NCBI RefSeq assembly: GCF_002902965.1
Contig: NZ_CP026109.1
Span: 124,001 to 188,000, forward strand
DNA: 64,000 nt
From: Paraburkholderia hospita
Lineage (GTDB): Bacteria > Pseudomonadota > Gammaproteobacteria > Burkholderiales > Burkholderiaceae
Direction: 5' to 3'
Of the stretch, positions 11,278-64,000 are shown piece by piece. Below the pieces are notes generated by a model. That model made no database searches. It saw nothing but the letters and a program-made list of their open reading frames with translations, and was not told the origin of the DNA. Position 1 is the stretch's first letter, and each line of letters starts with the position of its first letter. The position numbers and the translations under genes are program-made.

Positions 11278-11292
11278 GAGCCAGGGGGCAGT

Positions 11293-12525
11293 ATGGAACA
11301 ACGTCGCCTTCGTATTGGCGTAGCGGGATTGGGACGCGCATTTTCGCTGATGTTGCCGACGTTCCTGGGCGATCCGCGGGTCGAACTGGTCGCTGCCTGC
11401 GATCCCCGACCGGAAGCGAGGCGCCAGTTCGAGAAGGACTTCGACGCGCCCACGTACGGAGATGTGTCTGATCTCGCGATCGATGTCAACGTCGAAGTGA
11501 TCTATATTGCCAGCCCGCATCAGTTTCATGCGAGCCACACGGAAGTAGCGGCCGCGCATGGGAAGCACGTTCTCGTTGAAAAGCCGATGGCGCTCAGCGT
11601 CGAGGAATGTGACAGGATGATCTCCGCGTGCCGCGATGCAGGGGTCACGCTTATCGTCGGTCACTGCCACAGCTTCGATACACCCTACCTTGAAACGCGC
11701 AAGCTCATCCAGGGTGGCGAATTCGGTTCGGTCAGGATGATCCATGCGCTAAATTTCACTGACTATCTGTACCGCCCTCGTCGCCCCGAAGAACTGTCGA
11801 CGGCTGAAGGCGGCGGCGCTGTATTCAGCCAGGCCGCTCACCAGGTAGATATTGTTCGTCTACTCGCGGGGCAACGTGCGACTCGGATCCGGGCCACGGT
11901 AGGCAGCTGGGATCCAACGCGACCTACAGAAGGGGCATACAGTGCGATCCTGTGGTTCGAAACGGGTGCTTTCGCTTCGCTTTCCTACAACGGTTACGGT
12001 CACTTTGACTCAGACGAATGGACAGGCTGGATCGGCGAAATGGGGGATCCGAAGCGTCCCGATAGCTATGGTAGCGCTCGGCGGCGGCTCGCCACGCTCG
12101 TCTCGCTAGACGAGGAAGCGAACCTCAAGGCCGCGGGTACGTACGGTGGGGCGTCATATCAACCGCCAACGAATCAGGGAGGGCAACCGCGCCAGCATCA
12201 GCACTTCGGCCCGTTAGTCGTTTCCTGTGAAAAAGGTGATCTGCGTCCTTTGCCGGACGGCGTCGTCATTTATGGTGATCAGCACATCGAAAAGCGGAAC
12301 ATTGATGCGCCAAGCGTGCCGCGAGCCGAAGTGATCGACGAACTGTACGCTTCAGTGGTCGAGCACATCAGGCCGATCCACGACGGCGAATGGGCCAAAG
12401 ACACGCTGAAAATATGCGTCGCCATGCTGGAGTCCAGCCGGCAAGGACGCGACATCGAGCTGGCTGCTTGCGAACACTGTGGCGACCTTGTGGCTCTTTC
12501 AAAACACTCCCGTAGCTCGCGATGA
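11293..12525 (+). CDS. ophB: cis-4,5-dihydrodiol phthalate dehydrogenase (Gfo/Idh family)
   Basis: 410 aa, preceded by a strong CAGGGGG ribosome site 15 bases after ophA2. The N-terminal Rossmann motif is [14 protein letters not shown] (about 9-22). [14 protein letters not shown] (about 96-109) holds the conserved Lys of Gfo/Idh oxidoreductases. It oxidises the dihydrodiol to 4,5-dihydroxyphthalate using NAD(P)+. The assignment rests on the family plus its linkage to ophA2 and the rest of the oph genes. The end overlaps the next ORF by ATGA. A decayed copy of the last third of this gene lies at 12931-13045. Confidence 0.92.
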
Positions 12526-48937: not shown

Positions 48938-49081
48938 CCGTCGACATTGACCAACGTCATGGACGGCATGACGGCATCGCACCCGATCACGAAGTCCCGG
49001 CGAAAAGAGCCCAGCGAGCCCGACCGGCACGCTGAGCCGTTTCCGCTATGCTGGCGACGTTGCCAACCGATCGGAGGTGCT

Positions 49082-50542
49082 ATGCGACTGATCATCGAGG
49101 CCCGCGTAGAGGGCGAGGAAGCGCGTGCGACTGATGCAACGGTTCTTGCTGTGGTTGAACGAAATGACCTCAGCCTCGCCGATCTGGGACTGACACTTGC
49201 CGAAGGTCGTGCCTTGCTCGCCGAGGTTCAATCGTTTCTTGTGCCCGAGCAGACTGCCCGGTGGATGAAGAGCCAAATGGCTTGCCACCGCTGTGGCTCG
49301 ATGCTGGCGCACAAGGACGCCCGATCGATCGTGCTGCGAACCGTGTTTGGCAAGGTCGACGTGCCGAGTCCGAGGCTCTGGGCATGCAGCTGTGCGGCAG
49401 AGCAAGGGCGACCGCGCCGTTCTTCGAGCCCACTGTGCAAGGCCCTTCACCGGCGTGTGACGCCGGAATTGGAGTACCTGCAGGCCAAGTGGGCCGCCCA
49501 TCTCCCGTACCGTCAGGCCACCGAGCTGCTTCGAGAGGTCCTTCCACTGGACAAAGGGATTTCCTTCGGTAGTACTCGTCGTCGAATCCTCGCCGTGGGC
49601 AGCGCGCTGGACGCGCAGATCAACCGCGATATCGCGTCTGGACCAAAACCGGTCGGCGGGGAGCCGGTTCGCGAATCGACCGCCGTCGGCTGCGTGAGCG
49701 TCGACTCAGCGTGGCTGAGCTTCAGCAGCAGCCCCAAGAGCCGCAGGGCGGCGCGCGACCTTGCGGAGCTGAAATCGCCTTGGGCGCAGAAGTTGGCGCA
49801 GGATCGCCATGTCAACATCGTTGCGGGCCGCGCAACTCTCGCTGATCGCACCCCGCGTCTCTACGCTTACGTGCATAAGCTTGTGCCATCGGCGCCCGCG
49901 CGGCTGGACCAATTTCTCTTTGCAAGCGGCGTGGCTCCAGACGAGCGGGTCACCGTGATCAGCGATAACGCTGGCGAATTCGGCAAGGCTGTGGACGGCA
50001 GCCAGCTCGCTAGAGGAAGGATCCTGGACTGGTTTCACATCGCGATGAAATTCAAGGCTGCGAAGAACTCGGTGTTTGGGAGCCAGACGATGGAGCCTCA
50101 CGAGCGAAGCGCTGTGGAGACAGAGATCGATCACGCCAAGTGGCTGGTTTGGCATGGAAAGGGCCGGCAATCCGTGTCCCGTATCAAGGCCATGGATCCC
50201 ACGCTGTTGGCGAAGGAAGGCTACGAGTACTCGACGCTGTACTGGAACCTGCGCCGCCTGTACTTCTACATCGAGAACAACGCCGGTACGCTCGTGAACT
50301 ATTGCATGCGTTATCACAAGGGGCTACCGATCAGTAGCAGCATTGCCGAGTCCGCGGTCAACCTGGTTGTCAGCCATCGCATGGCGAAGAAGCAACAAAT
50401 GCGATGGACGGACGAGGGAGCGCATTGCCTGGCACAGGTCAGAGTGGCTGTCCTCAACGAAGAATTTTCGGTTGAGAGACTCGCCGTGTTGACCACGACT
50501 TCTGCAGTTGCAAACTCGCCAAGTGCGCGCCGAGTGGCGTGA
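49082..50542 (+). CDS. ISKra4-family transposase
   Basis: 486 aa from ATG 49082 (CGGAGGTGCT upstream); the frame is open from 48947. N-terminal zinc-ribbon-like CHRCGSML and CSC, then ELEYLQAKWAAHLPYRQATELL, typical of ISKra4 proteins. DDE-type core candidates are the Asp in VSVDSAWLSF (about 204-213), the Asp in VISDNAGEFGKA (about 293-304) and a Glu in SIAESAVN (about 422-429). It moves the element. No frameshift or stop, so it may be active. Confidence 0.88.
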   Translation: MRLIIEARVEGEEARATDATVLAVVERNDLSLADLGLTLAEGRALLAEVQSFLVPEQTARWMKSQMACHRCGSMLAHKDARSIVLRTVFGKVDVPSPRLWACSCAAEQGRPRRSSSPLCKALHRRVTPELEYLQAKWAAHLPYRQATELLREVLPLDKGISFGSTRRRILAVGSALDAQINRDIASGPKPVGGEPVRESTAVGCVSVDSAWLSFSSSPKSRRAARDLAELKSPWAQKLAQDRHVNIVAGRATLADRTPRLYAYVHKLVPSAPARLDQFLFASGVAPDERVTVISDNAGEFGKAVDGSQLARGRILDWFHIAMKFKAAKNSVFGSQTMEPHERSAVETEIDHAKWLVWHGKGRQSVSRIKAMDPTLLAKEGYEYSTLYWNLRRLYFYIENNAGTLVNYCMRYHKGLPISSSIAESAVNLVVSHRMAKKQQMRWTDEGAHCLAQVRVAVLNEEFSVERLAVLTTTSAVANSPSARRVA

Positions 50543-50767: not shown

Positions 50768-51003
50768 TGCGCTTCCTTTTCGAGTATCTCCGGCGTCCTC
50801 TGGAAGGCTCGACGTCGCCCGCGACATCGCAGGGACCGGCCGGGATTTGCGTAAGCAACGCTTATAAATAGAAAAAGCACGACTTTACAGAGTGCCTCGA
50901 GAACCCCGGCTCGGATAACCTGAATCGACTACGCGTAGCGTCGCGCCGGGCTCGGCATGTCGTGACATGTCGAGCAAGCCGATGCGAACTGAGGGTACTC
51001 CAC

Positions 51004-51852
51004 ATGCAGAAGATGGCTTTCGGGCAGGTCTATCGGGCCGATTCACCGATTCTCGTCGCCACGCCGCATACAGGCACGATCATTCCCGACGACTTGCTGC
51101 AGCATCCCGCATGGGTGCCCATCGCCGGCCGTCTCGCGGACCCGGCGGGCGTCGCGTTGCAGGCTGCGGCAGTGCGGCATGGCGTGTCCTTCGTGTCGGC
51201 GCTTTATCACCCGTGCGTGATCGACTTCAACATCGCCACCGACAACCGTCCGCTTTCGCAGCGCCTGAACTGCATCGGGCTGTGCCGCACGCATACGTCG
51301 CGCGGCGAATCGCTGTATGGGGCGGACGGGCAGCCTTCGGAAGCGGAAGTCGAGATGCGCGTCGACAGGTACTGGCGCCCGTTCCACGCGGCTGTGACGT
51401 CAGAACTCGTGCGCCTGCGGCAGATGCATGACAACGTTGTGCTGCTGGTCACACAGGCGAGTTCGTGGCTCTCGCCGTTTCGCAATCAGGCGGGCGCATC
51501 CGACTGCAACGTCGGCACGAACCAGGGCGCTTCATGCGACAGGCAACTGGTGTCGACGCTGACCGAGATCGTCAAATCGTGCGGACATTCGTGGGTCGTG
51601 AACGGCAGGGTCGCGGATGTGTTCTGCGCGCAGCGCTATGGCATGCCGGAGAACGGCATTCATGCGATCGAAGTCGAGATAGCGGGACGCTGGCGATCCG
51701 ATCTGGAGATCGACGCACGCGATACGGCCGATCCGAAGCCTGACGCTGCGATGGGAGCCCTGCTCGAAGCGCTGATGACAGCGCTTCGGCGTTTGCCGCG
51801 CGCCGAAGCGGTATCGGCGGCCGCGTTCGAGGACGCGAATGGACATGCATAA
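51004..51852 (+). CDS. N-formylglutamate amidohydrolase-like protein, diverged
   Basis: 282 aa from ATG 51004 (GAGGG upstream); the frame is open from 50962. Family landmarks are PILVATPHTGTIIPDD (about 13-28), YHPCVIDFNIATDNRPL (about 70-86), GLCRTHTSRGESLYG and CNVGTNQGASCD (about 166-177). The usual DLNR reads DFNI and the DAHS block appears as TQASSW, so metal or substrate residues may be lost. Known members turn N-formylglutamate into glutamate and formate. Its neighbours also deal with glutamate-yielding reactions. Activity is uncertain. Confidence 0.75.
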   Translation: MQKMAFGQVYRADSPILVATPHTGTIIPDDLLQHPAWVPIAGRLADPAGVALQAAAVRHGVSFVSALYHPCVIDFNIATDNRPLSQRLNCIGLCRTHTSRGESLYGADGQPSEAEVEMRVDRYWRPFHAAVTSELVRLRQMHDNVVLLVTQASSWLSPFRNQAGASDCNVGTNQGASCDRQLVSTLTEIVKSCGHSWVVNGRVADVFCAQRYGMPENGIHAIEVEIAGRWRSDLEIDARDTADPKPDAAMGALLEALMTALRRLPRAEAVSAAAFEDANGHA

Positions 51853-51924
51853 CACCGGGCTTGCGACGTCGTGGGCTGGCCGATGTATCCATGCTACATT
51901 CTTTCAGTCAATGCGCAGCCAGTC

Positions 51925-52926
51925 ATGAGAGAGAGCGGACCAGAACAATACCCCGACTGGGATCTTCTTGCCAGTTGGGTCGCTGTTGTCGAGTCGGGGT
52001 CGATATCCGACGCGGCGAACCGGCTTGCCATTTCGCAGGCGGGCGTGTCGCAACGTATCAAGGCACTCGAAACGATACTGGACACCACGCTGCTCGACCG
52101 CGCGACGCGCCCGGCGCGTCCCACGGCGGCCGGCCAGCGGCTGTTCGAGCATGCGACCGTGCTGTTGCAGGGCGCGGACCAGATGGTCGAAAGCGTGCGC
52201 AATGTGACGCGCGCCAAACGTGTCGTGGTCCGGCTGGGCTGCGTCGATTCGTTCGCGGCGACCATCGGTCCCATCATCATCAAGGCGCTGGCGGGCACCT
52301 CGCATCTGATCCGTTTGTGGTCGGGCATCACGCCAACACTTGATGGCCAGCTCGAAGCGCGGCAACTCGACATGGCCGTCACGACGACGAGCATCTCGCA
52401 GACGCCCGGCATCCGTCGGCAGAAGCTGTTCTCGGAACCGTATGTCGTCGTGTTGCCGCGCAGCTTCGAGGTCGACAGCTTTACGACGATCACCGAGTTG
52501 AGCCGGCATCTGCAACTCATCCGCTACAGCGCGCGCTCGGTGATCGGGCAGCATGTCGACGCCTATCTGGCTTCGAACGGCGAGAACATCGAGCGCACAT
52601 GCGAGTTCGACGCCACCGACCCCATGCTCAGTCTCGTCGCCGCAGGGTTGGGATTCGCGGTGACCACGCCGCTTTGTCTATGGCAATCGCGGCACTACGT
52701 GCCGGATGTCCGCGTCATTCCTCTTTCCAGTTTCTCCCGTCATGGGCGGCCTTATCAACGGCTAAGCCGGTCGTTCTTCCTCGCCTATCGGGAGAACGAA
52801 CTTGGACACTTACCCACGGACCTCTACGATCTGCTTCGGCGTGCATTCGAGCGGCAGGTTTCGCGCGACATCGCGAAGGCGCTGGCGCTCAACCCGGAAG
52901 ACGTTTGCCTGCAAGACGAGGAGTGA
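51925..52926 (+). CDS. LysR-family transcriptional regulator
   Basis: About 333 aa from ATG 51925; an upstream ATG at 51886 and the frame start 51871 are alternatives. Winged helix SWVAVVESGSISDAANRLA and ISQAGVSQRIKALETILDTT (about 14-52), then the effector domain with GCVDSFAATIGPIII. The family pattern resembles regulators of amino-acid or aromatic pathways. It follows the amidohydrolase-like gene on the same strand by 72 bases and converges on the TetR gene, 12 bases apart. Target unknown. Confidence 0.85.
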   Translation: MRESGPEQYPDWDLLASWVAVVESGSISDAANRLAISQAGVSQRIKALETILDTTLLDRATRPARPTAAGQRLFEHATVLLQGADQMVESVRNVTRAKRVVVRLGCVDSFAATIGPIIIKALAGTSHLIRLWSGITPTLDGQLEARQLDMAVTTTSISQTPGIRRQKLFSEPYVVVLPRSFEVDSFTTITELSRHLQLIRYSARSVIGQHVDAYLASNGENIERTCEFDATDPMLSLVAAGLGFAVTTPLCLWQSRHYVPDVRVIPLSSFSRHGRPYQRLSRSFFLAYRENELGHLPTDLYDLLRRAFERQVSRDIAKALALNPEDVCLQDEE

Positions 52927-52938
52927 GGCACTGCGACG

Positions 52939-53601
52939 CTAGTGGTTCGCGGGAGCGAAACTGCGTATGTTGCGCTTCCAGATCTGGTTCGTCGCGTTGT
53001 CGATGAAGCCGTGGAACACGTCGAGCACTTCGTCGATCGAAATGATCGCGGCCACGCGATGCTCGATCCACAGTCCGTGCACGAGGCCCATCGCCTGGAT
53101 CGCGTAAATCGTCGCCATGGTCGGGTCGCAGCCGGCCTGCCTGAGGTCGTGGATGAAGTTCGAGCGCAGCCGCCGCGAGAAGGCGGCGCACAGGCGCTGC
53201 ACTTCCTTGTCGTGCGCCGATGAACTCCACATGTGCGGCCACACGTTGGCGACGCCGGGGCTCATCACCTCGTCGCTGAAGCACATGTCGGCCGTGAATT
53301 TCATACGCGCGACGGGATCGGCGATGCCTCTGCGTCCCGCCGTCAACTGCTCGCGCACGCGCCGGATCAGATAGACGAAGGTCTTATAGACAAGGTTGCC
53401 CTTGTTTTCGAAGTGGTGGTGAACGAGGCCGACCGACACGCCCGCGTATTCGCTCACCTTGCGGATGGTCAGGTTCTCGAGTCCAACCTGCCCGACGACT
53501 TCCAGTGTCGAATCGATCAGACGCAGACGCATCCCCTCGTACTGGGCGGGATCGTCCTTGCGCGTCTCAGGCATCGCTTCGCGCGCCTTTTCTCCTTGCA
53601 T
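52939..53601 (-). CDS. TetR-family transcriptional regulator
   Basis: 220 aa from the ATG ending at 53601 (AAGGAGAAAA upstream); the longer frame to 53733 would cross the operator region. HTH LTIRKVSEYAGVSVGLVHHH (about 44-63) is followed by FENKGNLVYKTF. The C-terminal ligand domain resembles BetI-like regulators. It is divergent from the P5C dehydrogenase operon and three TGAAC-N4-GTTCA palindromes lie between, so it very likely represses itself and that operon until a ligand (perhaps proline-like or betaine-like) binds. Confidence 0.88.
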   Translation of the reverse strand: MQGEKAREAMPETRKDDPAQYEGMRLRLIDSTLEVVGQVGLENLTIRKVSEYAGVSVGLVHHHFENKGNLVYKTFVYLIRRVREQLTAGRRGIADPVARMKFTADMCFSDEVMSPGVANVWPHMWSSSAHDKEVQRLCAAFSRRLRSNFIHDLRQAGCDPTMATIYAIQAMGLVHGLWIEHRVAAIISIDEVLDVFHGFIDNATNQIWKRNIRSFAPANH

Positions 53602-53697
53602 GTGCACTTCCGTTCGGTGGTTGGATGAGTCGCCACGCTGGCTTTTCCTGCGCCGCGTTCGGCAGCTTACATGGTACCCAGGACTCGCAGTGCATCC

Positions 53698-53711
53698 TGA
53701 ACAAACGTTCA
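53698..53711. promoter_or_regulatory. TetR operator copy 1, TGAACAAACGTTCA
   Basis: Palindromic TGAAC-N4-GTTCA, 97 bases from the TetR start, next to a TTCCGGTT stretch. The second copy lies 55 bases away. Confidence 0.7.
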
Positions 53712-53752
53712 CTATCTGTTCCGGTTCTGTCAATCCATCTAGTCATTAAAGT

Positions 53753-54206: not shown

Positions 54207-55817
54207 GTGATTTCAGGCCCACAATTTCCGTTGCCGGCAAATGAGCCCGAGGTGCATTTCGGTCAAGGTACGAAGGCGGCAGCGGCGCTGAGCGAGGCGC
54301 TCGAGCAACGCGACGTCGTCGAGATTCCGACGGTGATCGGCGGCAAGCGGTACTTCTCGAACGACGTCGTCGAAGTCCGCGCGCCGCACGACACGCAGCG
54401 CCTGCTGGCCCGCATCCATCGTCCGACGCAGGCGCAGATCGCCGAAGCCATTACCAGCTCCGCGGCCGTCGCGAAAGACTGGGCGTCGCTGACGCACGCG
54501 AGCCGCGCAACGATTCTTCATCGCGCCGCGGAGATCGTCGCGACGCGTTCGCGGATCAGGATCAACGCGGCGACCATGCTCGGCCAGAGCAAGACGATTG
54601 ATCAGGCCGAACCCGACAGCGCGTGCGAACTGATCGATTTTCTGCGCTTCAATGCATACAACGCTCAACGCGTGTACGCCGAGCAGCCGATGTCCGTTCC
54701 GACTGCCGTGAACCGCGCCGACTGGCGGCCGCTGGAAGGCTTTGTCTACGCCGTCTCGCCGTTCAACTTCACGGCGATCGGCGCGAACCTGACGACGGCG
54801 CCCGCGATCATGGGCAACACGGTGCTGTGGAAGCCGTCGGAAAAGTCGGCGCTCGCGAATTACATCTTCTTCGAAGCGCTCGAAGAAGCCGGCCTGCCGC
54901 CCGGCGTCATCAACTTCGTGCCTGGCGACGCCGAACTGACGACGCGTGTGGCGATGTCGTCGCCGGACCTGGCGGGCATCCACTTCACGGGTTCGTCGTC
55001 GGTTTTCCAGTCGCTGTGGAAGGGCGTGGCGTCGAAGGTCGACAGCTTCCGCACGATTCCGCGCCTCGTCGGCGAGACGGGCGGCAAGGACTTCGTGCTT
55101 GCGCATGCGTCGGCGAATGCGTCGGAAGTCGCCATCGCGCTGATTCGCGGCGCGTTCGAGTACCAGGGGCAGAAGTGCAGCGCGGCGTCGCGCGCCTACG
55201 TTCCGCGCAGCCTGTGGACGGCCGTCAGTCAGGAACTGCGGGACCGTCTCGCCACGTTGAAAGTGGGCGATGTCGCCGATCCCACCACGTTCATGGGCGC
55301 GGTGATTTCGCAGGCGTCGCATCAGAAGCTGAGCCGCGCACTCGAAGCTGCGAAGGACGATCCGGCCGTCAAGGTCGTCGCCGGTGGCAAGACGTGGTCG
55401 GAGCCCGGCTATTTCGTCGAGCCGACTGTTCTTCAGGTCTCCGATCCGAAGCACGCGCTGATGAAGGAAGAACTGTTCGGCCCGGTGCTGTCCGTCTTCG
55501 TCTATGAAGACAATGCGTGGCAGGAAACGCTCGAACTGATCGACGCCACGAGCCCCTACGCGCTGACGGGTTCCATCTTCAGCACCGATCGCTTCGCCCT
55601 GCATGAGGCCGAGCGCGTGCTGATCAATGCGGCGGGCAATCTGTACCTGAACGACAAGCCGACGGGCGCAATGATCGGCCAGCAGCCGTTCGGCGGCGGC
55701 CGCGCGAGCGGGACGAACGACAAGGCGGGTTCGTATCTGAACCTGCTGCGCTGGGCGTCGCCGCGCGTCGTGAAGGAAACGTATCTGCCGCCGCGCGACT
55801 GGCAGTTCGGCGCCTAA
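54207..55817 (+). CDS. pruA: 1-pyrroline-5-carboxylate (L-glutamate gamma-semialdehyde) dehydrogenase
   Basis: 536 aa from GTG 54207 with AAGGAG six bases upstream; the frame is open from 54177. ALDH superfamily with P5CDH features: SPFNFTAIGANLTTAPAIMG (about 186-205), catalytic Glu in GETGGKDF (about 289-296), catalytic Cys in YQGQKCSAASRAY (about 318-330), and EELFGPVLSVFVYED (about 424-438). It oxidises glutamate semialdehyde to glutamate with NAD+. It heads an operon with an ABC importer and a PutA-like gene whose own aldehyde dehydrogenase half seems dead, so it likely supplies that step. Confidence 0.93.
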   Translation: MISGPQFPLPANEPEVHFGQGTKAAAALSEALEQRDVVEIPTVIGGKRYFSNDVVEVRAPHDTQRLLARIHRPTQAQIAEAITSSAAVAKDWASLTHASRATILHRAAEIVATRSRIRINAATMLGQSKTIDQAEPDSACELIDFLRFNAYNAQRVYAEQPMSVPTAVNRADWRPLEGFVYAVSPFNFTAIGANLTTAPAIMGNTVLWKPSEKSALANYIFFEALEEAGLPPGVINFVPGDAELTTRVAMSSPDLAGIHFTGSSSVFQSLWKGVASKVDSFRTIPRLVGETGGKDFVLAHASANASEVAIALIRGAFEYQGQKCSAASRAYVPRSLWTAVSQELRDRLATLKVGDVADPTTFMGAVISQASHQKLSRALEAAKDDPAVKVVAGGKTWSEPGYFVEPTVLQVSDPKHALMKEELFGPVLSVFVYEDNAWQETLELIDATSPYALTGSIFSTDRFALHEAERVLINAAGNLYLNDKPTGAMIGQQPFGGGRASGTNDKAGSYLNLLRWASPRVVKETYLPPRDWQFGA

Positions 55818-55848
55818 GTCGCTACCCGGCTTCTCCTGAGGAAACGTG

Positions 55849-56925
55849 ATGTCAACCATTGTCTCTTTCAAGAATGTGCAGAAGACCTATGACGGTGAAA
55901 CCCTCGTGGTCAAGAACCTCAACCTGGAGATTCAGGAGGGTGAATTCCTGACGATGCTCGGACCGTCGGGTTCTGGAAAGACAACGTGTCTGATGATGCT
56001 CGCCGGCTTCGAGACGGCCACGCACGGCGAGATTCTGCTTCAGGGGAGGCCGATCAACCGCATTCCGCCCGAGCGCCGGAATATCGGCATGGTCTTTCAG
56101 AGCTATGCGCTGTTCCCGCACAAATCCGTCGCGGAGAACCTCGCGTTTCCGCTGAAGGTGCGAAAAGTATCGAAAGACGAGATCGCGAAAAAGGTGAAGC
56201 GGGCGCTCGCGATGGTCAACATGGAGAAGTTCGCCAACCGCATGCCCGCGCAGTTGTCGGGTGGCCAGCAGCAGCGGATCGCCGTTGCGCGCGCGCTGGT
56301 GTTCGAGCCGGCGCTGGTGCTGATGGACGAGCCGCTTGGCGCGCTCGACAAGCAGCTGCGCGAGCAGATGCAGTACGAGATCAAGCAGATCCACGAGCAG
56401 AGCGGTCTCACGGTCGTGTACGTCACGCACGACCAGGGCGAGGCGATGACGATGTCCGACCGTATCGCGGTGTTCAACAACGGCATCATCCAGCAACTGG
56501 CCTCGCCGTCAGTGTTGTATGAACAGCCCGAGAACGCGTTCGTCGCGCGCTTCATCGGCGAAAGCAACGAGTTGCTCGGCACGGTGTCGACGCTCGAGCG
56601 CGAGCACTGCACGATCAGCCTCGACAACGGGCATCGCATCAAGGCGAGCGCGGGCCCCGCTATCCGCGCGTCGGGTCACGCGAGCATCTCGTTGCGCCCG
56701 GAGCGCATTTCGATCGGAGACGACGCGCGCAGGTGCGACAACGTCTTTCAAGGTGGTGTGAAGGATTTGATCTACTACGGAGATCATCTCCGGGTAGTGA
56801 TGCAGGTTTGCGGGCGAAACGATTTCATTGTCAAGCTTCCAAATGACGGCGCTGCGCGTCAATTGCGTATCGGCGACTCCGTACACGTTGGCTGGATGGC
56901 TGAAGCATGCCGAGCCTTGCAATAG
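55849..56925 (+). CDS. ABC importer ATP-binding protein (PotA-like)
   Basis: 358 aa from ATG 55849 (GAGGAAA upstream). Walker A GPSGSGKTT (about 38-46), Q-loop FQSYALFPH, signature LSGGQQQR (about 135-142), Walker B LVLMDEP, H-loop VTHDQGEA. A C-terminal TOBE domain (about 240-350) marks the spermidine/putrescine/iron class. It powers uptake together with the next three genes. No operon gap: 31 bases after the dehydrogenase gene. Confidence 0.93.
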   Translation: MSTIVSFKNVQKTYDGETLVVKNLNLEIQEGEFLTMLGPSGSGKTTCLMMLAGFETATHGEILLQGRPINRIPPERRNIGMVFQSYALFPHKSVAENLAFPLKVRKVSKDEIAKKVKRALAMVNMEKFANRMPAQLSGGQQQRIAVARALVFEPALVLMDEPLGALDKQLREQMQYEIKQIHEQSGLTVVYVTHDQGEAMTMSDRIAVFNNGIIQQLASPSVLYEQPENAFVARFIGESNELLGTVSTLEREHCTISLDNGHRIKASAGPAIRASGHASISLRPERISIGDDARRCDNVFQGGVKDLIYYGDHLRVVMQVCGRNDFIVKLPNDGAARQLRIGDSVHVGWMAEACRALQ

Positions 56926-56983
56926 TTTCAGTCAGGTAAAGCCTCACTGATTTTCTAGACCATTTATCGACGGAGTGAAGCAG

Positions 56984-58048
56984 ATGAACCCGAAATACGC
57001 TTTAGGAATCCTTATCGCATGTGGTTGCGTGAGCACGGCGGCATCGGCGGCTCAGGTGACGTTCACGTCGTGGGGCGGCGCGTGGCAGGACGCGCAGGAG
57101 AGCACGGCCGCGAAACCGTTCGCGCAGCAGGCCGGTGTGCAGCTCAAGACGGACACGTACAACGGCGGCATCGCGCAGGTCCGCAGCCAGGTGCAAACCA
57201 GCAATGTCACGTGGGACGTCGTTGACATGCAGCTGGCCGACGCGATCCGTGCATGCGACGAGGGCTTGCTCGAGAAGGTGAATCCCACCACGCTCGCACC
57301 GGCCAAAGATGGCACGCCCGCAAAGAGCGATTTCATTGCGGGCGGCCTGTCGGAGTGTCTGGTGGGCAGCATTGCCTGGTCCACGCTCATCGCCTACAAC
57401 ACCGACAAGTTCAAGGGACATGAGCCGACGAAGATCGCCGACTTCTTCGACCTGAAGAAATACCCCGGCAAGCGCGGGCTGCGCAAGTCGCCCGAAGGCG
57501 CGCTGGAATGGGCGCTGCTCGCCGACGGCGTGCTGCCCGCCGATGTCTACAAGATGCTGTCCACGCCCGCAGGATTGAATCGCGCATTCAAGAAGCTCGA
57601 CACGATCAAGTCGTCGATCGTCTGGTGGGAAACGGGCGCGCAGCCGGCACAGCTTCTCGCCGACGGTGAAGTGACGATGAGTAGCGCCTACAACGGCCGC
57701 ATCTACAGCGCGATGATCACCGACAAAAAGCCGTTCGGCTTCCTGTGGGATGGTCAGGTCAAGAACATCGAAGGCTACGCGATCGTGAAGGGCTCGAAGA
57801 ACCTGAAGGCCGCGCAGGACTTTGTGCGCTACGCGACGCAAGCTGATGTGCTTGCCAAGCTTGCGCCGCTGACGGCATATGGTCCGGCGCGCAAGTCATC
57901 GATTCCGCTGGTCGACGCCAAGGTCTCACCTTATCTGCCGACGGCACCCGCCAATCAGAAAGGCGCGATCGATGAAGACACGGCGTTCTGGGCCGACCAT
58001 TCGGACGACCTGAACCAGAAGTTCGCGGTCTGGCTGAGCCAGAAGTAA
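56984..58048 (+). CDS. ABC importer periplasmic binding protein (PotD-like)
   Basis: 354 aa from ATG 56984 with GGAG upstream. Signal peptide ends AASAAQ. Mature part begins VTFTSWGGAWQDAQ, the opening seen in spermidine/putrescine-type binding proteins, and carries the hinge region KKYPGKRGLRKSPEGALEWAL. It captures the substrate in the periplasm. The ligand cannot be told from sequence; given the operon, a proline- or polyamine-related amine or betaine is plausible. Confidence 0.9.
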   Translation: MNPKYALGILIACGCVSTAASAAQVTFTSWGGAWQDAQESTAAKPFAQQAGVQLKTDTYNGGIAQVRSQVQTSNVTWDVVDMQLADAIRACDEGLLEKVNPTTLAPAKDGTPAKSDFIAGGLSECLVGSIAWSTLIAYNTDKFKGHEPTKIADFFDLKKYPGKRGLRKSPEGALEWALLADGVLPADVYKMLSTPAGLNRAFKKLDTIKSSIVWWETGAQPAQLLADGEVTMSSAYNGRIYSAMITDKKPFGFLWDGQVKNIEGYAIVKGSKNLKAAQDFVRYATQADVLAKLAPLTAYGPARKSSIPLVDAKVSPYLPTAPANQKGAIDEDTAFWADHSDDLNQKFAVWLSQK

Positions 58049-58099: not shown

Positions 58100-59383
58100 A
58101 TGATGATTCTTCCCACTGATATTGCCGTACCAGCAGCTGGCGAGTCCGAGCCGATTTACATCGGCGATTCGAAAAGCCTCAAGTCGAAGCTGCGCAGCGC
58201 GGAGCGCGCCGAGCGTACCAAGGCGATGTTGTTGATCGCGCCGCTGCTGGCCTTCCTTCTCGTCACCTTTCTGGTTCCGATCGGCAGCCTGTTGATGAAG
58301 AGCTTCCGCGACCCGACGATTTCGCAGGAAATGCCTGCCACGGCAGCGCTGCTTCGCGAATGGAATCCTGCTGCCGGAAAGCTGCCCGGTGAGCATGTCT
58401 ATGACGCGTTCGGCAAGGATCTTCTTGCAGCGAAGGCCAATGAAGGCGTGAGCCGCGTGGCGTCGCGCCTCAATTACGACGAAGCGGGCATGCGTAGTCT
58501 CGTCATGAAGACTGCGCGCCGTCTGGGCGATAGCGACACGGGGACATGGCATCAACGCCTGTCGGCCATCGATCCGCGCTGGGACGACATCGGGGCGTGG
58601 TCCACGCTCAAATATGCATCCTCGCCGTGGACGCTCGGCTATTACCTGAAGGCATTCGATTTCAAACGCGACAGCGACGGTTCGATCGTCCGTCAAGCGC
58701 CGGGCGAGCGGCTATATGTCGATGTGTTCGTGCGGACCGCGTGGGTCAGTCTTGCCGTGAGCGCGCTGTGTCTTCTGTTCGGGTATCCCGTCGCCTTCTT
58801 TCTGGCGAACATTCCCGCGCGTTACAGCAACCTGTTCATGATCATGGTGCTGTTGCCGTTCTGGACGTCCATTCTGGTTCGAACCACCGCGTGGGTCGTG
58901 GTGCTGCAGACCAACGGCGTGCTCAACGATCTCTTCATTCACATGGGTCTCACGCAGTCAGGCTTCGCGCTGATCTACAACCGCTTCGGCGTGCTGGTGG
59001 CGATGACGCACATCCTCTTGCCCTACGCGATCCTGTCGCTGTACGCGGTGATGAAGGGCGTGCCGAACATCTACATGAAAGCGGCGCGCTCGCTCGGCGC
59101 GGGCCCGATTCTGTCCTTCTTTCAGGCCTATTTTCCGCAGACGCTGCCGGGCGTAGGCGCAGCCGGCATGCTGACGTTCATTCTCGCTGTTGGCTACTAC
59201 ATCACGCCCGCCATCGTCGGCGGACCGGATGATCAGCTCGCGAGCTACTACATCGCGAATCATGTGAACGCGACGCTGAACTGGGGGCTCGCCAGCGCGC
59301 TCGCATCCATTCTGCTGGCGGGCGTGCTGTTCGTCTATGCGATCTTCGTCCGGATGACGGGCGGCGGTGTGAAACTGGGGTAA
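58100..59383 (+). CDS. ABC importer permease 1 (PotB-like)
   Basis: 427 aa, longer than the usual 280-310 because of a large extra segment between the first helix (LLIAPLLAFLLVTFLVPIGS, about 44-63) and the core helices (about 70-200, soluble, e.g. AFGKDLLAAKANEGVSRVA). Core permease with the EAA-like loop AARSLGAGPILSFFQAYFPQ (about 330-349). The ribosome site before ATG 58100 is weak. Such long PotB homologues occur in betaproteobacterial importers. Confidence 0.88.
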   Translation: MMILPTDIAVPAAGESEPIYIGDSKSLKSKLRSAERAERTKAMLLIAPLLAFLLVTFLVPIGSLLMKSFRDPTISQEMPATAALLREWNPAAGKLPGEHVYDAFGKDLLAAKANEGVSRVASRLNYDEAGMRSLVMKTARRLGDSDTGTWHQRLSAIDPRWDDIGAWSTLKYASSPWTLGYYLKAFDFKRDSDGSIVRQAPGERLYVDVFVRTAWVSLAVSALCLLFGYPVAFFLANIPARYSNLFMIMVLLPFWTSILVRTTAWVVVLQTNGVLNDLFIHMGLTQSGFALIYNRFGVLVAMTHILLPYAILSLYAVMKGVPNIYMKAARSLGAGPILSFFQAYFPQTLPGVGAAGMLTFILAVGYYITPAIVGGPDDQLASYYIANHVNATLNWGLASALASILLAGVLFVYAIFVRMTGGGVKLG

Positions 59384-59387
59384 TGCC

Positions 59388-60221
59388 ATGTTCAACTTTC
59401 CCGCATACGTCACGGTCTGGGGACGTCTCGGCCGGTTCGCTCACGTCGGCGTCTCGCTGGCCGTGCTGTTGTTCCTCGTTTCGCCCGTGCTCGTGGTGAT
59501 GCCGCTGTCGTTCAACTCGCAGCCGTACTTCACGTATCCGATGCAGGGCGTGAGCCTTCGCTGGTATCACGATTTCATCAACAGCCCAGACTGGATGCTC
59601 GCGCTCAAGAACACGATGATCGTCGGCATCGTGTCGACGCTCATCGCAACCGTGCTCGGCGTGACGGCTTCGCTCGGCTTGATGCATCCGCGTCTGAAAG
59701 GGAAGGCGCTCGTGACGGGCATTCTGGTTTCGCCGATGATCGTGCCGCTCATCATCACGGCCGTGGGCGTGTACTTCGCGTTCAGCCCGCTCGGTCTCAC
59801 GAACAGTCTGACGGGGCTGATTCTCGCGCATGCCGCGCTTGGCGTGCCGTTCGTCGTGGTGACGGTCACGGCGACGCTCGCCGGTTTCAACGAAACGCTG
59901 TCGCGCGCGGGCCGCAGCCTCGGCGCGTCGCGCGTGCGCGTCTTCATGCAGGTGAAGCTTCCCATCATCGCGCCGGGCGTGGTGTCGGGCGCACTGTTCG
60001 CGTTCGCGACGTCGTTCGATGAAATCGTCGTCGCGCTCTTTCTGACGGGCACGGATCAGCGCACGGTGCCGCGGCAAATGTGGTCGGGTATCCGCGAACA
60101 GCTGAGCCCGACGATTCTCGCGGTGGCAACCGTCCTCGTCGTCATCTCGACGTTGCTGCTCGTCACGCTGGAACTGTTGCGCCGCCGGTCCGAGCGTCTG
60201 CGTGGCGCCGCCGCATTGTGA
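59388..60221 (+). CDS. ABC importer permease 2 (PotC-like)
   Basis: 277 aa, four bases after the first permease (GGGGTAATGCC start region). Six helices and the EAA loop AGRSLGASRVRVFMQVKLP (about 172-190). It pairs with the preceding permease. The final residues RRRSERLRG are basic and cytoplasmic. Confidence 0.92.
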   Translation: MFNFPAYVTVWGRLGRFAHVGVSLAVLLFLVSPVLVVMPLSFNSQPYFTYPMQGVSLRWYHDFINSPDWMLALKNTMIVGIVSTLIATVLGVTASLGLMHPRLKGKALVTGILVSPMIVPLIITAVGVYFAFSPLGLTNSLTGLILAHAALGVPFVVVTVTATLAGFNETLSRAGRSLGASRVRVFMQVKLPIIAPGVVSGALFAFATSFDEIVVALFLTGTDQRTVPRQMWSGIREQLSPTILAVATVLVVISTLLLVTLELLRRRSERLRGAAAL

Positions 60222-60277: not shown

Positions 60278-63200
60278 ATGTTGTCGGAAATCCAAGCCAT
60301 GCAGGCCGCCACGACGAACCTCGCCACGCTGCGCCAGCGCATCCGCGACGCAACGGCCTTGCCTGAAGAAGCGGTCGTTCAGCAATTGATGCAGCAGGCG
60401 CGTATGGATGCGCCGACGCTTGCCACGACGCAGGCGCTGGCCGGGCGTCTGGCGCAAGGCGTGCGTGACGCGCGCATCGATGCAGGCGGCGTCGATCTGC
60501 TGACGCAGGAGTTCTCGCTCGACAGCCGCGAAGGCATCGCGCTGATGTGTCTGGCGGAAGCGATGCTCCGTATTCCGGATACGGCGACGCGCAACCAGCT
60601 GATTCGCGACAAGATCGTCGATGCGGACTGGCGGGCGCACATCGGCAAGTCGCCGTCGCTGTTCGTCAATGCGACGGCGTGGGGACTACTCGTCACGGGC
60701 AAGCTGCTGAAGCAGCCGGATGAGAACGCACTGGCGGAAGCACTGACGCGGGTGGTGAGAAAGGGCGGCGAAGCTGTCGTGCGCGCGGGCGTCGCCTACG
60801 CGATGCGCATGCTGGGCAAGCAGTTCGTCACGGGCCAAACCATCGAAGAGGCAATCGGCGTGGCAAAGGGCCGGGAATCGGGCGGTTACCGATACTCGTA
60901 CGACATGCTGGGCGAGGCCGCTCTGACCGACGAGGATGCGCAGGCGTATTTCGAATCGTATCGCCATGCAATCGAAGCGATCGGCAAGGACGCGAAGGGC
61001 AAGGGGCCGATCGACGGGCCAGGCGTATCGGTGAAGATATCCGGGCTTCACCCGCGCTACGAACTGGCGCAACGCGAGCGGGTTCTGATCGAGCTGTATC
61101 CGCGCCTCTTGCAACTCGCGCAACTCGCGAAGCAATACGGCATCGGCTTTCACCTCGACCAGGAAGAGTCCGCGCGATTCGACCTGACGCTCGAAATGCT
61201 GGAGCGCCTGTGCATGGAGCCGACGCTGAAGGGCTGGAACGGCATCGGGATTTCGCTGCAGGCGTACCAGAAGCGCGGCTGGGCCGTGGCGGAATGGATC
61301 ATCGCGCTGGCCCGCTCCACAGGCCGCCGCATCAATATCCGGCTGGTCAAGGGTGCTTACTGGGACACTGAAATCAAGCTCGCTCAGGATGCGGGCGCCG
61401 CCGGCTACCCCGTCTTCACCCGCAAGGTCCATTCGGACGTGAGCTACATCGCTTGCGCAAAGGCCTTGCTTGACGCGCCTGACGCGATCTTTCCGCAATT
61501 TGCCACGCACAACGCCTTCACGGTTGCCGCCGTCCATACGCTGGCGGGGAACAAGGAATACGAGTTCCAGTGTCTGCACGGGATGGGCGAAACGGTGTAC
61601 GACCAGGTCGTCGGACCGACGAAACTGGGCCGTCCGTGCCGGATTTACGCACCCGTTGGACCACATGCGACGCTGCTCGCCTACCTCGTGCGGCGGCTGC
61701 TCGAAAACGGCGCGAACTCTTCTTTCGTGAATCAGATCGTCGATCCGGCCGTCAGCATCGCGGATATCGTCGAAGACCCGGTTGCCAGGGCTGCGCGCAC
61801 GGGCGGCAAACCGCATGCGGGTATTGCTTCGCCTCGCGGCGTGCTGCCGGGCCGGCTCAATGCCGCGCCCATGCAGTTTGCGGCGTCTGCCGCATTCGAC
61901 AAGGCGGTTGCGGACGTACGCACGAATCGCGTCGTTGCGCAGTCGATCGTGGCGGGCGCGGGCGAGCTTGCGTCCGATGCGACGGCGCTCGTCTACAGTG
62001 CGAGCGACGCGTCGGAGGTAATCGGCAGTGTCGCGAGTTGCAGGATCGATGCCGTCGAGAGGGCATGCGCGGCCGCGTCGCAGGCTTTGACGTCGTGGGG
62101 ACGCGCCGCGCCCGATACGCGCGCGGCGATGCTCGAAGACGTTGCGAACGCGCTCGAGAAAAACGCTGAACGGTTCGGCGCACTTCTCGTGCTGGAAAAC
62201 GGCGCGACGCTCGCCGAGGCCGTCGACGAAGTCAGAAGTTCGGTGAATTTGTGCCGCCTGTACGCGTACCAGATCTCGTCCGATACGCGGCTCGCTAGCG
62301 CCGAGCCACTTGGCGTCGTAGTGAGCATCACGCCGGCGTCGTCGCCCCTGACGACGTTTGTCGGGCATATTGCGTCCGCGCTCGCAGCGGGGAATGTCGT
62401 TGTGGCAAAGCCATCGTCGGACGCGTCACTGGTTGCCTATGAAGCGGCGCGACTGTTCGTTCAATGCGGCGTGCCCGACGGCGTGTTGCAAATCGTGCTG
62501 GGCGATGGCGGCACGGTTGGACGGGCGCTGTTGTCCGATCGTCGAGTAGCAGGGGTTCTTTTTTCGGGTTCACGCGAAACGGGCCGTGCTGTTTCGATCC
62601 AGCTTGCAGCGTTGCCGAAAGCACCGAAATTGATCGGCGTGTTCGGCGGCGTCAATTCGATGATCGTCGATAGTTCCGCGTTGCCCGAGCAGGTCATATC
62701 CGACGCGATTGTCTCTGCTTTCAGGAACGCCGGACAGTCGGCATCGTCGTTGCGCATTTTGTGTCTGCAGGATTCGACTGCGGGCAAGGTGCTGCGCATG
62801 CTCAACGGCATGTTGAGCGAGCGCATGACGGGCAACCCGCTGAGCGCTGCAACGGATATCGGACCTGTGGCCACGCGCCGCGCGCGAGACCGCGCCGAAG
62901 CCTACCTTGCGCAATTGAAGCAGAGTGGTATGACGGTGGTGCGCGGCAAGCTTTCGGGCGATTGCAGCAAGGGAAATTATGTCGCGCCTGCGATTGTGGA
63001 TATCGGCGATGTGGGTGCGTTGACTTCGATTGATCCTGCCGTCGCCGGTCCTATCGTTCATGTGCTGCGATACAGGACGGGGGAGATGGACGCGTTGTTG
63101 CACGCGCTCAATGAACGCGGTTGCGGCGTGCAAGGCTTGCACACGCGCATCAACGAGGCGGCGGGAAAGCTGCTGTCGCTAACCAGGGCCAACAGTGTCT

Positions 63201-64000
63201 GCATCAATCGCGCGATGCACAGTGCGTTTGTGGGCATGCAGCCGTTCGGCGGTGTCGATGCGAGCGGCACGGGCCCGATGGCAGGCGGCCCGCTGACGCT
63301 TGCCAGTCTTACGCAACAGGCCGCGTTATCGTTCGAGGCCGCAAGCGGCCCGTTCGCTGCAACGGCAACCGCAGTGAGCGAAAAGTTCTTCGAGTTTCCG
63401 GTCGAAGGTCCGGACGGAAAGCGGGTCAGCCGCCAGACGGCTGCGGCCAAAGCGCGGTCGGCACAACGTCATCACCTCGATGCGCTGTTCAACCTTGCTT
63501 CGTCGCGCGGTGCCCATGCAAAGGATCTCGCGGCGCTCGGCGATTTCAGAAGCCGCGTGAGCGAAATGCTTGCGGCGATGCGGCCGCTTGGTTTGCCTGC
63601 GTTGACGGGCGAAGAGAACACGGTTGAGTTGTTGCCTCGTGGACAGGTGTTGTGCGCCGCGGATTCAACATCGGCCGTGATTGCGCAAGCCATCGCTGCA
63701 GCCGCTTTCGGCAATGAAGTCGTATTGCTGAAATGCCAGCTCTCGGAAGAAATCGCCAATACCCTGGGTGCCGGATGCCGCGTGATCGACGCCGCAGATG
63801 CCGCGCGGATTCTGCGTGGAGACGTTCCCGGCGTGCGTCCCGCCGTTGTGCTGGCGACACCCGGCCAGCACGGTCTCGACACCATCCGCAGCCTGGCAGC
63901 CGAGGCGATGATTGCAGTCGTCGTGGCGGACGATTCCGGCCTCTACGACTGGACGCAACTGGTGCGCGAACGCGTCACGACCGTGAACGCGAGTGCCGCC
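60278..64000 (+). CDS. putA: PutA-type proline dehydrogenase with defective P5CDH half (3' cut by window end)
   Basis: 1241 codons to the window edge without a stop. It begins with the arm domain (MLSEIQAMQAATTN), so the ribbon-helix-helix DNA-binding part of longer PutA is absent. The proline dehydrogenase barrel (about 180-490) has GFHLDQEE, LVKGAYWD, YEFQCLHGMGE, RIYAPVG and RRLLENGANSSFVNQI, all typical. In the aldehyde dehydrogenase half (about 560-1030) the usual AETGGQN reads GVFGGVN (Glu to Val788) and AGQRCSALR reads AGQSASSLR (Cys to Ala822). PFGGVDASGTG is kept. So it should oxidise proline with FAD but not P5C. Confidence 0.92.
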   Translation, partial: MLSEIQAMQAATTNLATLRQRIRDATALPEEAVVQQLMQQARMDAPTLATTQALAGRLAQGVRDARIDAGGVDLLTQEFSLDSREGIALMCLAEAMLRIPDTATRNQLIRDKIVDADWRAHIGKSPSLFVNATAWGLLVTGKLLKQPDENALAEALTRVVRKGGEAVVRAGVAYAMRMLGKQFVTGQTIEEAIGVAKGRESGGYRYSYDMLGEAALTDEDAQAYFESYRHAIEAIGKDAKGKGPIDGPGVSVKISGLHPRYELAQRERVLIELYPRLLQLAQLAKQYGIGFHLDQEESARFDLTLEMLERLCMEPTLKGWNGIGISLQAYQKRGWAVAEWIIALARSTGRRINIRLVKGAYWDTEIKLAQDAGAAGYPVFTRKVHSDVSYIACAKALLDAPDAIFPQFATHNAFTVAAVHTLAGNKEYEFQCLHGMGETVYDQVVGPTKLGRPCRIYAPVGPHATLLAYLVRRLLENGANSSFVNQIVDPAVSIADIVEDPVARAARTGGKPHAGIASPRGVLPGRLNAAPMQFAASAAFDKAVADVRTNRVVAQSIVAGAGELASDATALVYSASDASEVIGSVASCRIDAVERACAAASQALTSWGRAAPDTRAAMLEDVANALEKNAERFGALLVLENGATLAEAVDEVRSSVNLCRLYAYQISSDTRLASAEPLGVVVSITPASSPLTTFVGHIASALAAGNVVVAKPSSDASLVAYEAARLFVQCGVPDGVLQIVLGDGGTVGRALLSDRRVAGVLFSGSRETGRAVSIQLAALPKAPKLIGVFGGVNSMIVDSSALPEQVISDAIVSAFRNAGQSASSLRILCLQDSTAGKVLRMLNGMLSERMTGNPLSAATDIGPVATRRARDRAEAYLAQLKQSGMTVVRGKLSGDCSKGNYVAPAIVDIGDVGALTSIDPAVAGPIVHVLRYRTGEMDALLHALNERGCGVQGLHTRINEAAGKLLSLTRANSVCINRAMHSAFVGMQPFGGVDASGTGPMAGGPLTLASLTQQAALSFEAASGPFAATATAVSEKFFEFPVEGPDGKRVSRQTAAAKARSAQRHHLDALFNLASSRGAHAKDLAALGDFRSRVSEMLAAMRPLGLPALTGEENTVELLPRGQVLCAADSTSAVIAQAIAAAAFGNEVVLLKCQLSEEIANTLGAGCRVIDAADAARILRGDVPGVRPAVVLATPGQHGLDTIRSLAAEAMIAVVVADDSGLYDWTQLVRERVTTVNASAA

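What the first reader, a model, noticed from the sequence alone, without database searches (positions are those of the whole stretch)
60278..64000. PutA with a catalytically dead aldehyde dehydrogenase half, partnered by a stand-alone P5C dehydrogenase in the same operon
Direct reading: the ALDH half has Val788 where the family has the catalytic Glu (GVFGGVN for AETGGQN) and Ala822 where it has the catalytic Cys (AGQSASSLR for AGQRCSALR), while the proline dehydrogenase motifs are intact. The first gene of the operon (54207-55817) is a P5CDH with both residues. Inference: the two-step proline-to-glutamate reaction is split again, with the dead half kept for structure, channelling or regulation, or the dehydrogenase half acts on a proline analogue delivered by the ABC importer.
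Basis: partly seen in the sequence, partly recalled or inferred. Interest (0 to 1): 0.85.

Follow-up and report, generated by a model that had tools for sequence, protein, structure and literature searches.

The report
PutA with a dead second half
Some soil and plant-associated bacteria carry a second copy of the two-step proline-burning enzyme whose second half has lost its catalytic residues but is still kept, and a separate enzyme that can do the second step is encoded close by, in a gene cluster that looks built to eat the plant osmolyte proline betaine.

Summary
The window gene ("PutA2", 1255 aa) has an intact proline dehydrogenase half; its aldehyde dehydrogenase (ALDH) half lacks the nucleophilic Cys (Ala822), general-base Glu (Val788), oxyanion Asn (Ser688) and NAD-ribose Glu (Ala921). 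It is a conserved subfamily, not a decaying copy: 32 of 32 full-length members (Burkholderiaceae, Aromatoleum, Azohydromonas, Leeia) lack all four, while 57 of 57 canonical PutAs keep the four motifs. The dead half is under relaxed but clear purifying selection (dN/dS 0.11-0.33, against 0.016-0.089 for the live half), and gate, docking residues, part of the tunnel helix and the C-terminal lid stay nearly invariant. A P5C dehydrogenase with intact motifs lies in the cluster in 32 of 32. A Stc2/GbcA-type N-demethylase occurs in 28 of 29 PutA2 genomes against 4 of 29 controls, pointing to proline betaine. Best reading: PutA2 makes P5C, another protein finishes the reaction, and the dead half survives as tunnel wall and scaffold. 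Against the simple 'split' story: all 29 genomes tested also hold a normal PutA, and six related genomes keep the P5CDH without PutA2. No activity was measured.

The parts
60278..64000 (+). PutA2 gene (cut by the window end; the full gene is 1255 aa and ends 45 bases further on): type-B-like PutA without the RHH DNA-binding domain
60818..61792 (+). proline dehydrogenase barrel (residues 181-505), all proline-contact and gate residues intact; mean 61% identical to the barrel of the canonical paralogue over 29 genomes
61934..63322 (+). dead GSALDH/ALDH half (residues 553-1015), fold predicted intact
62333..62350 (+). oxyanion loop PWNFPL replaced by PASSPL (Asn lost, Ser688)
62639..62641 (+). 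Val788 in place of the general-base Glu (SmPutA Glu810)
62681..62737 (+). tunnel-wall helix LPEQVISDAIVSAFRNAGQ (SmPutA 824-842); window 796-810, which overlaps its first half, is the most conserved 15-residue stretch of the dead half; the second half varies more
62741..62743 (+). Ala822 in place of the catalytic Cys (SmPutA Cys844)
63038..63040 (+). Ala921 in place of the NAD-ribose Glu
63323..64000 (+). C-terminal domain and start of the C-terminal tunnel-lid motif (RERVTTVNASAAGGNTQLM, residues 1230-1248, completed outside the window)
54207..55817 (+). stand-alone P5C (L-glutamate gamma-semialdehyde) dehydrogenase, TIGR01236 type, catalytic Cys and Glu intact
55846..56925 (+). PotA-like ABC transporter ATPase
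56975..58048 (+). ABC substrate-binding protein; solved relatives are labelled spermidine/putrescine, polyamine, GABA sensor, mannopine and agropine binders
58100..59383 (+). PotB-like ABC permease
59388..60221 (+). PotC-like ABC permease
52939..53733 (-). TetR-family regulator, BetI-like (112-114 bits, below the cut-offs), divergent from the operon
51871..52926 (+). LysR-family regulator, its family seen in the fetched stretches of 22 of 29 genomes
50962..51852 (+). divergent N-formylglutamate amidohydrolase-family protein (FGase1, well below the equivalog cut-off)

Best explanation
PutA2 is a paralogous, re-specialised PutA. Its proline dehydrogenase half oxidises L-proline to P5C with FAD. 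Its ALDH half cannot oxidise glutamate-gamma-semialdehyde. The semialdehyde is oxidised by another protein, most simply the stand-alone P5CDH encoded in the same operon or cluster. The dead half is retained because it forms one wall of the P5C tunnel, the seat of the C-terminal lid and the scaffold that positions the barrel; P5C can still enter, and perhaps hydrolyse, in this chamber before release. The island supplies proline from proline betaine or a close relative: import by the Pot-type ABC system, N-demethylation by a Stc2/GbcA-type Rieske enzyme, and a second demethylation by the sarcosine-oxidase-like enzyme next to the ETF genes; in some members proline also comes from trans-3-hydroxyproline. 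SHOWN by computation: loss of catalytic residues, clade-wide conservation, purifying selection, conserved channel parts, predicted intact fold, linkage to P5CDH and to a quaternary-amine demethylase. INFERRED: the activities, the substrate, the electron route and the chamber role.
Against: Six Paraburkholderia genomes keep the P5CDH core module without PutA2. All 29 PutA2 genomes have a canonical PutA with live motifs that could do both steps, so the gain from PutA2 is not obvious. 38 PutA2-specific changes in the barrel, several in the loop that roofs the tunnel docking site, could mean a different substrate. Conservation is not confined to channel parts: windows 953-967 and 828-842 of the dead half, which no source I read assigns to the tunnel, rank second and third, and the second half of the tunnel helix varies more. 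In the window's own genome the demethylase lies on another contig and no t3Hyp genes were seen nearby. The Rieske match is below the GbcA cut-off and its substrate is inferred. The N-formylglutamate deformylase and HutD genes are not explained by this pathway. NCBIfam's bifunctional PutA model NF008869 is passed (1098.8 bits, cut-off 747). No activity was measured.
Confidence: 0.6

Rival explanations
1. PutA2 oxidises a proline analogue (for example N-methylproline or a hydroxyproline) and the semialdehyde it makes is one that the canonical ALDH half handles badly but the stand-alone P5CDH handles well.
For: 38 PutA2-specific substitutions in the barrel, fixed or nearly so, including F291 H292 L293 Q295 A299 F301 T304 around the loop carrying Sm Glu309-Arg312. 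The island is linked to quaternary-amine demethylation. The same P5CDH persists in a core module where PutA2 is absent.
Against: All five residues reported to contact proline are identical in 32 of 32. The P5CDH matches the glutamate-semialdehyde dehydrogenase equivalog above its cut-off.
Confidence: 0.22
2. The dead half is a passive relic: catalysis was lost by drift after duplication, and the domain is kept only because its removal would unfold the protein, with no role for the tunnel.
For: Relaxed selection on the ALDH half and CTD; root-to-tip divergence of the ALDH half 1.086 against 0.299 for the ProDH half. Two of the three best-conserved windows are not known channel parts.
Against: Docking residues, part of the tunnel helix and the C-terminal lid are nearly invariant. 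A mere folding prop would not obviously need the lid.
Confidence: 0.12
3. The dead half is a sensor that binds GSA or NAD(H) and regulates the proline dehydrogenase half.
For: Pseudoenzymes can act as allosteric regulators (general statement in PMC10650815, passages). Parts of the aldehyde anchor region (987-1004) are moderately conserved.
Against: The NAD-binding motifs are among the most eroded: E714 and E921 lost in 32 of 32, and the FTGSTEVA loop is highly variable.
Confidence: 0.04
4. The ALDH half is still active with an unusual nucleophile.
For: Some Cys columns are gained in PutA2 (975 in 29 of 32, 659 in 30 of 32).
Against: Nucleophile, base, oxyanion Asn and ribose Glu are all gone in 32 of 32. 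None of the gained Cys is invariant or in the catalytic loop. In SmPutA, C844S alone disables the activity (PMC12398946, passages).
Confidence: 0.02

Closest known systems
Canonical type B/C PutA (SmPutA 5kf6 and relatives; EcPutA)
   Same: Same domain order, barrel active site, tunnel gate and docking residues, C-terminal lid motif, predicted overall fold
   Different: No catalytic Cys, Glu, Asn or NAD-ribose Glu in the GSALDH half; no RHH domain; lies in a betaine-type island with a separate P5CDH
Laboratory dead PutA variants (SmPutA C844S; an Ala at the catalytic Cys position in the sequence of 9c8c)
   Same: GSALDH nucleophile removed with the tunnel left in place; C844S was made to trap GSA (PMC12398946 passages; 9c8c letters)
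   Different: Those are engineered single changes; PutA2 is a natural lineage that has lost four catalytic residues
ALDH16A1 (human pseudo-ALDH)
   Same: ALDH fold without the catalytic triad (PMC10650815 passages)
   Different: Not fused to a proline dehydrogenase (recalled); no role in proline catabolism is stated in the passages seen
C-terminal domain of type B/C PutA
   Same: An extra domain that contributes to ALDH activity and channelling (PMC5293562 passages), named an ALDH-superfamily domain in the title of Luo 2016 (reference list only)
   Different: That domain is separate and present in ordinary PutA as well; here the catalytic domain itself is dead
Monofunctional PRODH plus P5CDH pairs (Mycobacterium PruB/PruA, PMC10537722, abstract start in search listing)
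   Same: Two proteins do the two steps
   Different: There the first enzyme is monofunctional, without an ALDH half

Membership tests
PutA (bifunctional proline dehydrogenase/GSALDH) | proline dehydrogenase barrel with FAD/proline residues | tested here: met
   Pfam PF01619 334 bits; contact residues 32 of 32
PutA (bifunctional proline dehydrogenase/GSALDH) | ALDH domain fused C-terminally | tested here: met
PutA (bifunctional proline dehydrogenase/GSALDH) | NCBIfam bifunctional PutA model NF008869 above its cut-off | tested here: met
   1098.8 bits, cut-off 747; the model does not test catalytic residues
PutA (bifunctional proline dehydrogenase/GSALDH) | catalytic Cys and Glu of the GSALDH site; domain model TIGR01238 above its cut-off | tested here: not met
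   Cys and Glu 0 of 32; TIGR01238 394.6 bits, cut-off 485.2; so it is a PutA homologue, not a bifunctional enzyme by sequence
PutA (bifunctional proline dehydrogenase/GSALDH) | measured proline:quinone and GSA:NAD activities | not testable with these tools
   needs purified protein
Trifunctional PutA (type C), as the P. largidicola orthologue is annotated | N-terminal RHH DNA-binding domain | tested here: not met
   absent: the gene begins at the arm domain; NF008772 1193 bits, below its cut-off 1750
ALDH pseudoenzyme | ALDH fold without catalytic triad, maintained by selection | tested here: met
L-glutamate gamma-semialdehyde dehydrogenase TIGR01236 (the partner gene) | score above the curated cut-off and catalytic Cys/Glu | tested here: met
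   window gene 714 bits, cut-off 613.6; Cys, Glu and Asn in 32 of 32 cluster copies
Proline betaine catabolic pathway | group Vb-like Rieske N-demethylase linked to the cluster | tested here: met
   28 of 29 genomes, a copy within 21 kb of PutA2 in 24 of 29; nearest solved structures 3n0q, 4qup and 3vca, about 300 bits each; 3vca as Stc2 is recalled
Proline betaine catabolic pathway | growth on proline betaine depending on the cluster | not testable with these tools
   needs a growth and deletion test

The most novel reading that the evidence does not exclude
PutA2 is a natural P5C hydrolysis and hand-over chamber. After proline oxidation the intermediate is kept in the retained tunnel, hydrolysed to the semialdehyde at the conserved docking site, and passed to the stand-alone P5CDH docked on PutA2, so channelling has been moved from within one protein to between two, with the dead ALDH half turned into the docking and tunnel part.
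Probability: 0.15. Interest if true: 0.8.

Novelty: new variant of a known kind. Interest (0 to 1): 0.6.

Why it matters
PutA is a textbook case of substrate channelling, and the orthologue seen in a public record is annotated as a complete trifunctional enzyme. A natural lineage that has lost the second catalytic site but still conserves the gate, the docking site, part of the tunnel helix and the lid separates 'tunnel needed for catalysis' from 'tunnel needed for the first step or for release'. It makes the open question of where P5C hydrolyses (raised for SmPutA in PMC12398946, passages) directly testable with a wild-type protein instead of a mutant. It also shows that annotation transfer overstates the function of these genes, and it marks a likely proline-betaine island in Burkholderiaceae.

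Tried and rejected
Sequencing error or pseudogene: rejected. 32 full-length open orthologues, no stops inside the matches, purifying selection.

'PutA2 genomes lack a normal PutA': rejected; 29 of 29 have one with intact motifs. Not tested in Aromatoleum, Azohydromonas or Leeia.

'P5CDH exists only to serve PutA2': rejected; six genus genomes have it without PutA2. Their P5CDHs nest inside the PutA2-associated tree in at least two places, so loss of PutA2 there is the likelier reading. A seventh genome, G110, has a 60% identical P5CDH with no other cluster gene in its 20 kb stretch.

Wider spread: an order search with the dead half gave 11 of 399 genomes at E<=1e-100; besides G000 the ten others have canonical motifs. 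The ProDH signature pattern hit 1 of 369 class genomes, G000 only. An order search with the Leeia ProDH half gave 4 of 399: G000, G541 (identical to the Leeia locus over the query), G584 (dead motifs) and G710 (canonical). These are samples of larger groups, so absence elsewhere is not shown.

Tree origin: PutA2 is one clade in both halves (support 1.0), but under the root used the canonical set was not a clade in the ProDH tree, so the donor of PutA2 is unresolved.

Model limits: the model lacks residues 1-60 and 1241-1255 and is poor (block pLDDT 53-67) over PutA2 residues 461-500, which hold the proline-contact and gate Arg helix, and over much of 61-180. Foldseek gives TM-scores of 0.82-0.84 (query-normalised) to SmPutA but rmsd 6.3-7.0 A over about 1200 columns, so domain orientation is not settled.

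Dropped rows: a third PutA of G071 (L184) was left out of the counts (it is in the trees), and L151 and L153 of the outgroups were left out; all three have canonical motifs. The 12 dN/dS pairs share branches and use a simple counting method. The association P-value (about 4e-15 for 14 of 14 PutA2 genomes among 20 P5CDH genomes of 144) ignores phylogeny. The control was my own choice: the first 29 Paraburkholderia handles without PutA2 or this P5CDH, skipping two small genomes (G015, G022). It does not match the seven genera of the test set. In one search the best demethylase match of two genomes (G133, G052) carries one stop in the matched frame, possibly because the query has an upstream extension; in G216 the copy within 21 kb is the second-best one.

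Literature searches on inactive ALDH or pseudoenzyme PutA listed no report of a PutA with a dead GSALDH half. Only listed titles and abstract starts were seen (2 of 2, 20 of 22, 10 of 1,602, 15 of 194, 8 of 8), and only open-access papers are held. PMC4113996 and PMC4575208 passages were seen and not used as evidence. PMC3950512, a proline betaine pathway paper, is not held.
Full report
1. What is there. The window is G000:C5:124001-188000 of an 11.5 Mb genome with six contigs. Genes 94% identical in the dead half lie on 2.3-2.5 Mb plasmid records of Paraburkholderia largidicola and Paraburkholderia sp. 22B1P. The gene at 60278 continues 45 bases beyond the window and encodes 1255 aa. It has the PutA arm, the Pro_dh barrel, an ALDH domain and a C-terminal region, but no RHH domain. 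The same genome has a canonical trifunctional PutA (PutA1) and two short ProDH-only genes. PutA2 and PutA1 are 57.5% identical over residues 1-520 but 39.1% over the ALDH half.

2. The observation. Val788 and Ala822 stand where PutA1 has the general-base Glu and the catalytic Cys. In addition the oxyanion Asn is Ser688 and the NAD-ribose Glu is Ala921. In SmPutA, Cys844 and Glu810 are catalytic and C844S disables the activity (PMC12398946, passages). General family models do not see it: NF008869 (bifunctional PutA) is passed, while the P5CDH domain model TIGR01238 is not.

3. It is a conserved subfamily. Searching with the dead half found 14 of 144 Paraburkholderia genomes at 57-100% identity, with a gap down to 41% for canonical PutA, and 19 of 398 family genomes in 7 of 25 genera, 4 of them already seen: 29 distinct. 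A scan of named genomes gave 35 loci. Of these, 25 are PutA2 in Paraburkholderia, Caballeronia, Burkholderia, Trinickia, Pandoraea, Cupriavidus, Aromatoleum toluvorans, Azohydromonas australica and Leeia oryzae; 9 are canonical; one short fragment was not examined. Of these 32, none has the Cys (28 Ala, 2 Leu, 1 Gly, 1 Pro), the Glu, the Asn or the ribose Glu; 36 of 36 canonical sequences have all four. A second control of 57 canonical PutAs, partly overlapping the first, was intact in 57. PutA2 is one clade with support 1.0 in the trees of both halves, so a single old loss is the simplest reading.

4. The dead half is under selection. In 12 pairs dN/dS was 0.016-0.089 for the ProDH half, 0.11-0.33 for the ALDH half and 0.12-0.26 for the C-terminal region, against 0.016-0.103 for the ALDH half of PutA1; the dead half was the faster in 12 of 12 on both comparisons. 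Of the sites invariant in canonical PutA, 159 of 181 are kept in the ProDH part, but only 79 of 174 in the ALDH part, where 43 are lost in at least 90% of members. The catalytic and NAD loops are among the variable parts. The most conserved 15-residue window of the dead half, 796-810 (entropy 0.12 against a half-wide mean of 1.24), overlaps the first half of the helix that in SmPutA (824-842) lines the tunnel. The pattern is not pure: windows 953-967 and 828-842, not known to me as channel parts, come next, and the later part of the tunnel helix varies more. The gate Glu and Arg, and the docking Glu309 and Arg312 equivalents, are 31-32 of 32. The C-terminal motif is nearly invariant; in SmPutA and other PutAs the C terminus forms a lid over part of the tunnel (PMC12398946, passages). 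The barrel carries 38 PutA2-specific changes present in at least 31 of 32, several clustered at residues 291-304.

6. Neighbourhood. The operon is P5CDH, PotA, substrate-binding protein, PotB and PotC-like permeases, PutA2, with gaps of 4-56 bases. Around it lie an FGase-family gene, LysR, a BetI-like TetR, an N-formylglutamate deformylase, ETF alpha and beta, a HutD gene, a sarcosine-oxidase-beta-like enzyme and ETF-quinone oxidoreductase. P5CDH is in the cluster in 29 of 29 genomes and the three outgroup loci, with Cys, Glu and Asn in 32 of 32. It is directly upstream on the same strand in 26 of 29; in G072, G192 and G473 it heads a neighbouring block. Each of the 29 also has a canonical PutA. 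In the genus 20 of 144 genomes have this P5CDH at 84% or more, including all 14 PutA2 genomes and six without PutA2. Those six keep FGase1-LysR-P5CDH; ETF genes are in the fetched 20 kb in five of them and the oxidoreductase in four, but not PutA2.

7. Substrate. Fetched stretches, which are incomplete, show a proline-racemase/trans-3-hydroxyproline-dehydratase-like gene in 14 of 29, a Pyr2C-reductase-like gene in 11 and a Rieske enzyme in 11. A whole-genome search found that Rieske enzyme, at E<=1e-150, in 28 of 29 PutA2 genomes and in 4 of 29 Paraburkholderia controls. By coordinates a copy lies within 21 kb of PutA2 in 24 of 29; in the window's genome it is on another contig. Its best solved relatives are 3n0q, 4qup and 3vca, and it scores 390 bits to the glycine betaine GbcA model, cut-off 670. 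Stc2 is the proline betaine demethylase of group Vb (PMC7948474, passages); that 3vca is Stc2 is recalled. The substrate-binding protein's solved relatives bind GABA, polyamines or opines by their labels. I infer proline betaine to N-methylproline to proline to P5C to glutamate.

8. What remains open. Why keep a dead half for so long; whether P5C is hydrolysed and handed over; why the P5CDH module persists without PutA2 in six genomes, where the P5CDH tree suggests PutA2 was lost; and what the deformylase and HutD do here. No activity was measured. Public annotation of the P. largidicola orthologue calls it trifunctional, which the sequence contradicts on two of three functions.

Noticed in passing
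L005:12529-13353 (+) and window 50962-51852 (+): Two N-formylglutamate amidohydrolase-family genes flank the operon, one above the deformylase equivalog cut-off (355 bits, cut-off 278.75), and a HutD gene sits between ETF beta and the oxidoreductase in related islands; N-formylglutamate has no obvious place in proline betaine breakdown.
   Followed up: partly
L113-L118 (P5CDH regions of G003, G018, G031, G036, G068, G138): The FGase1-LysR-P5CDH core occurs without PutA2; only distant Pot-type ABC matches (about 29-42%) lie nearby, a full set of four in G018, G036 and G068.
   Followed up: partly
L154 (Leeia oryzae) 8360-11917: The most eroded member: even the AKPAEQ and TGSTEV NAD motifs are unrecognisable, yet the lid motif SINASASGGNTQLM and the full length are kept.
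   Followed up: partly
L184 (G071:C142): A third PutA in one genome, canonical in its ALDH motifs, 72% identical to PutA1, with the match starting at PutA1 residue 70, after the RHH region.
   Followed up: partly
L007 and L008 (G000:C3): Two short ProDH-only genes (open frames of 307 and 340 aa) on another contig, one near an ORF that looks like a transposase by eye; their function was not examined.
   Followed up: no
window 48947-50542 (+): An ORF that looks like a transposase (by eye, not searched) lies just upstream of the island.
   Followed up: no
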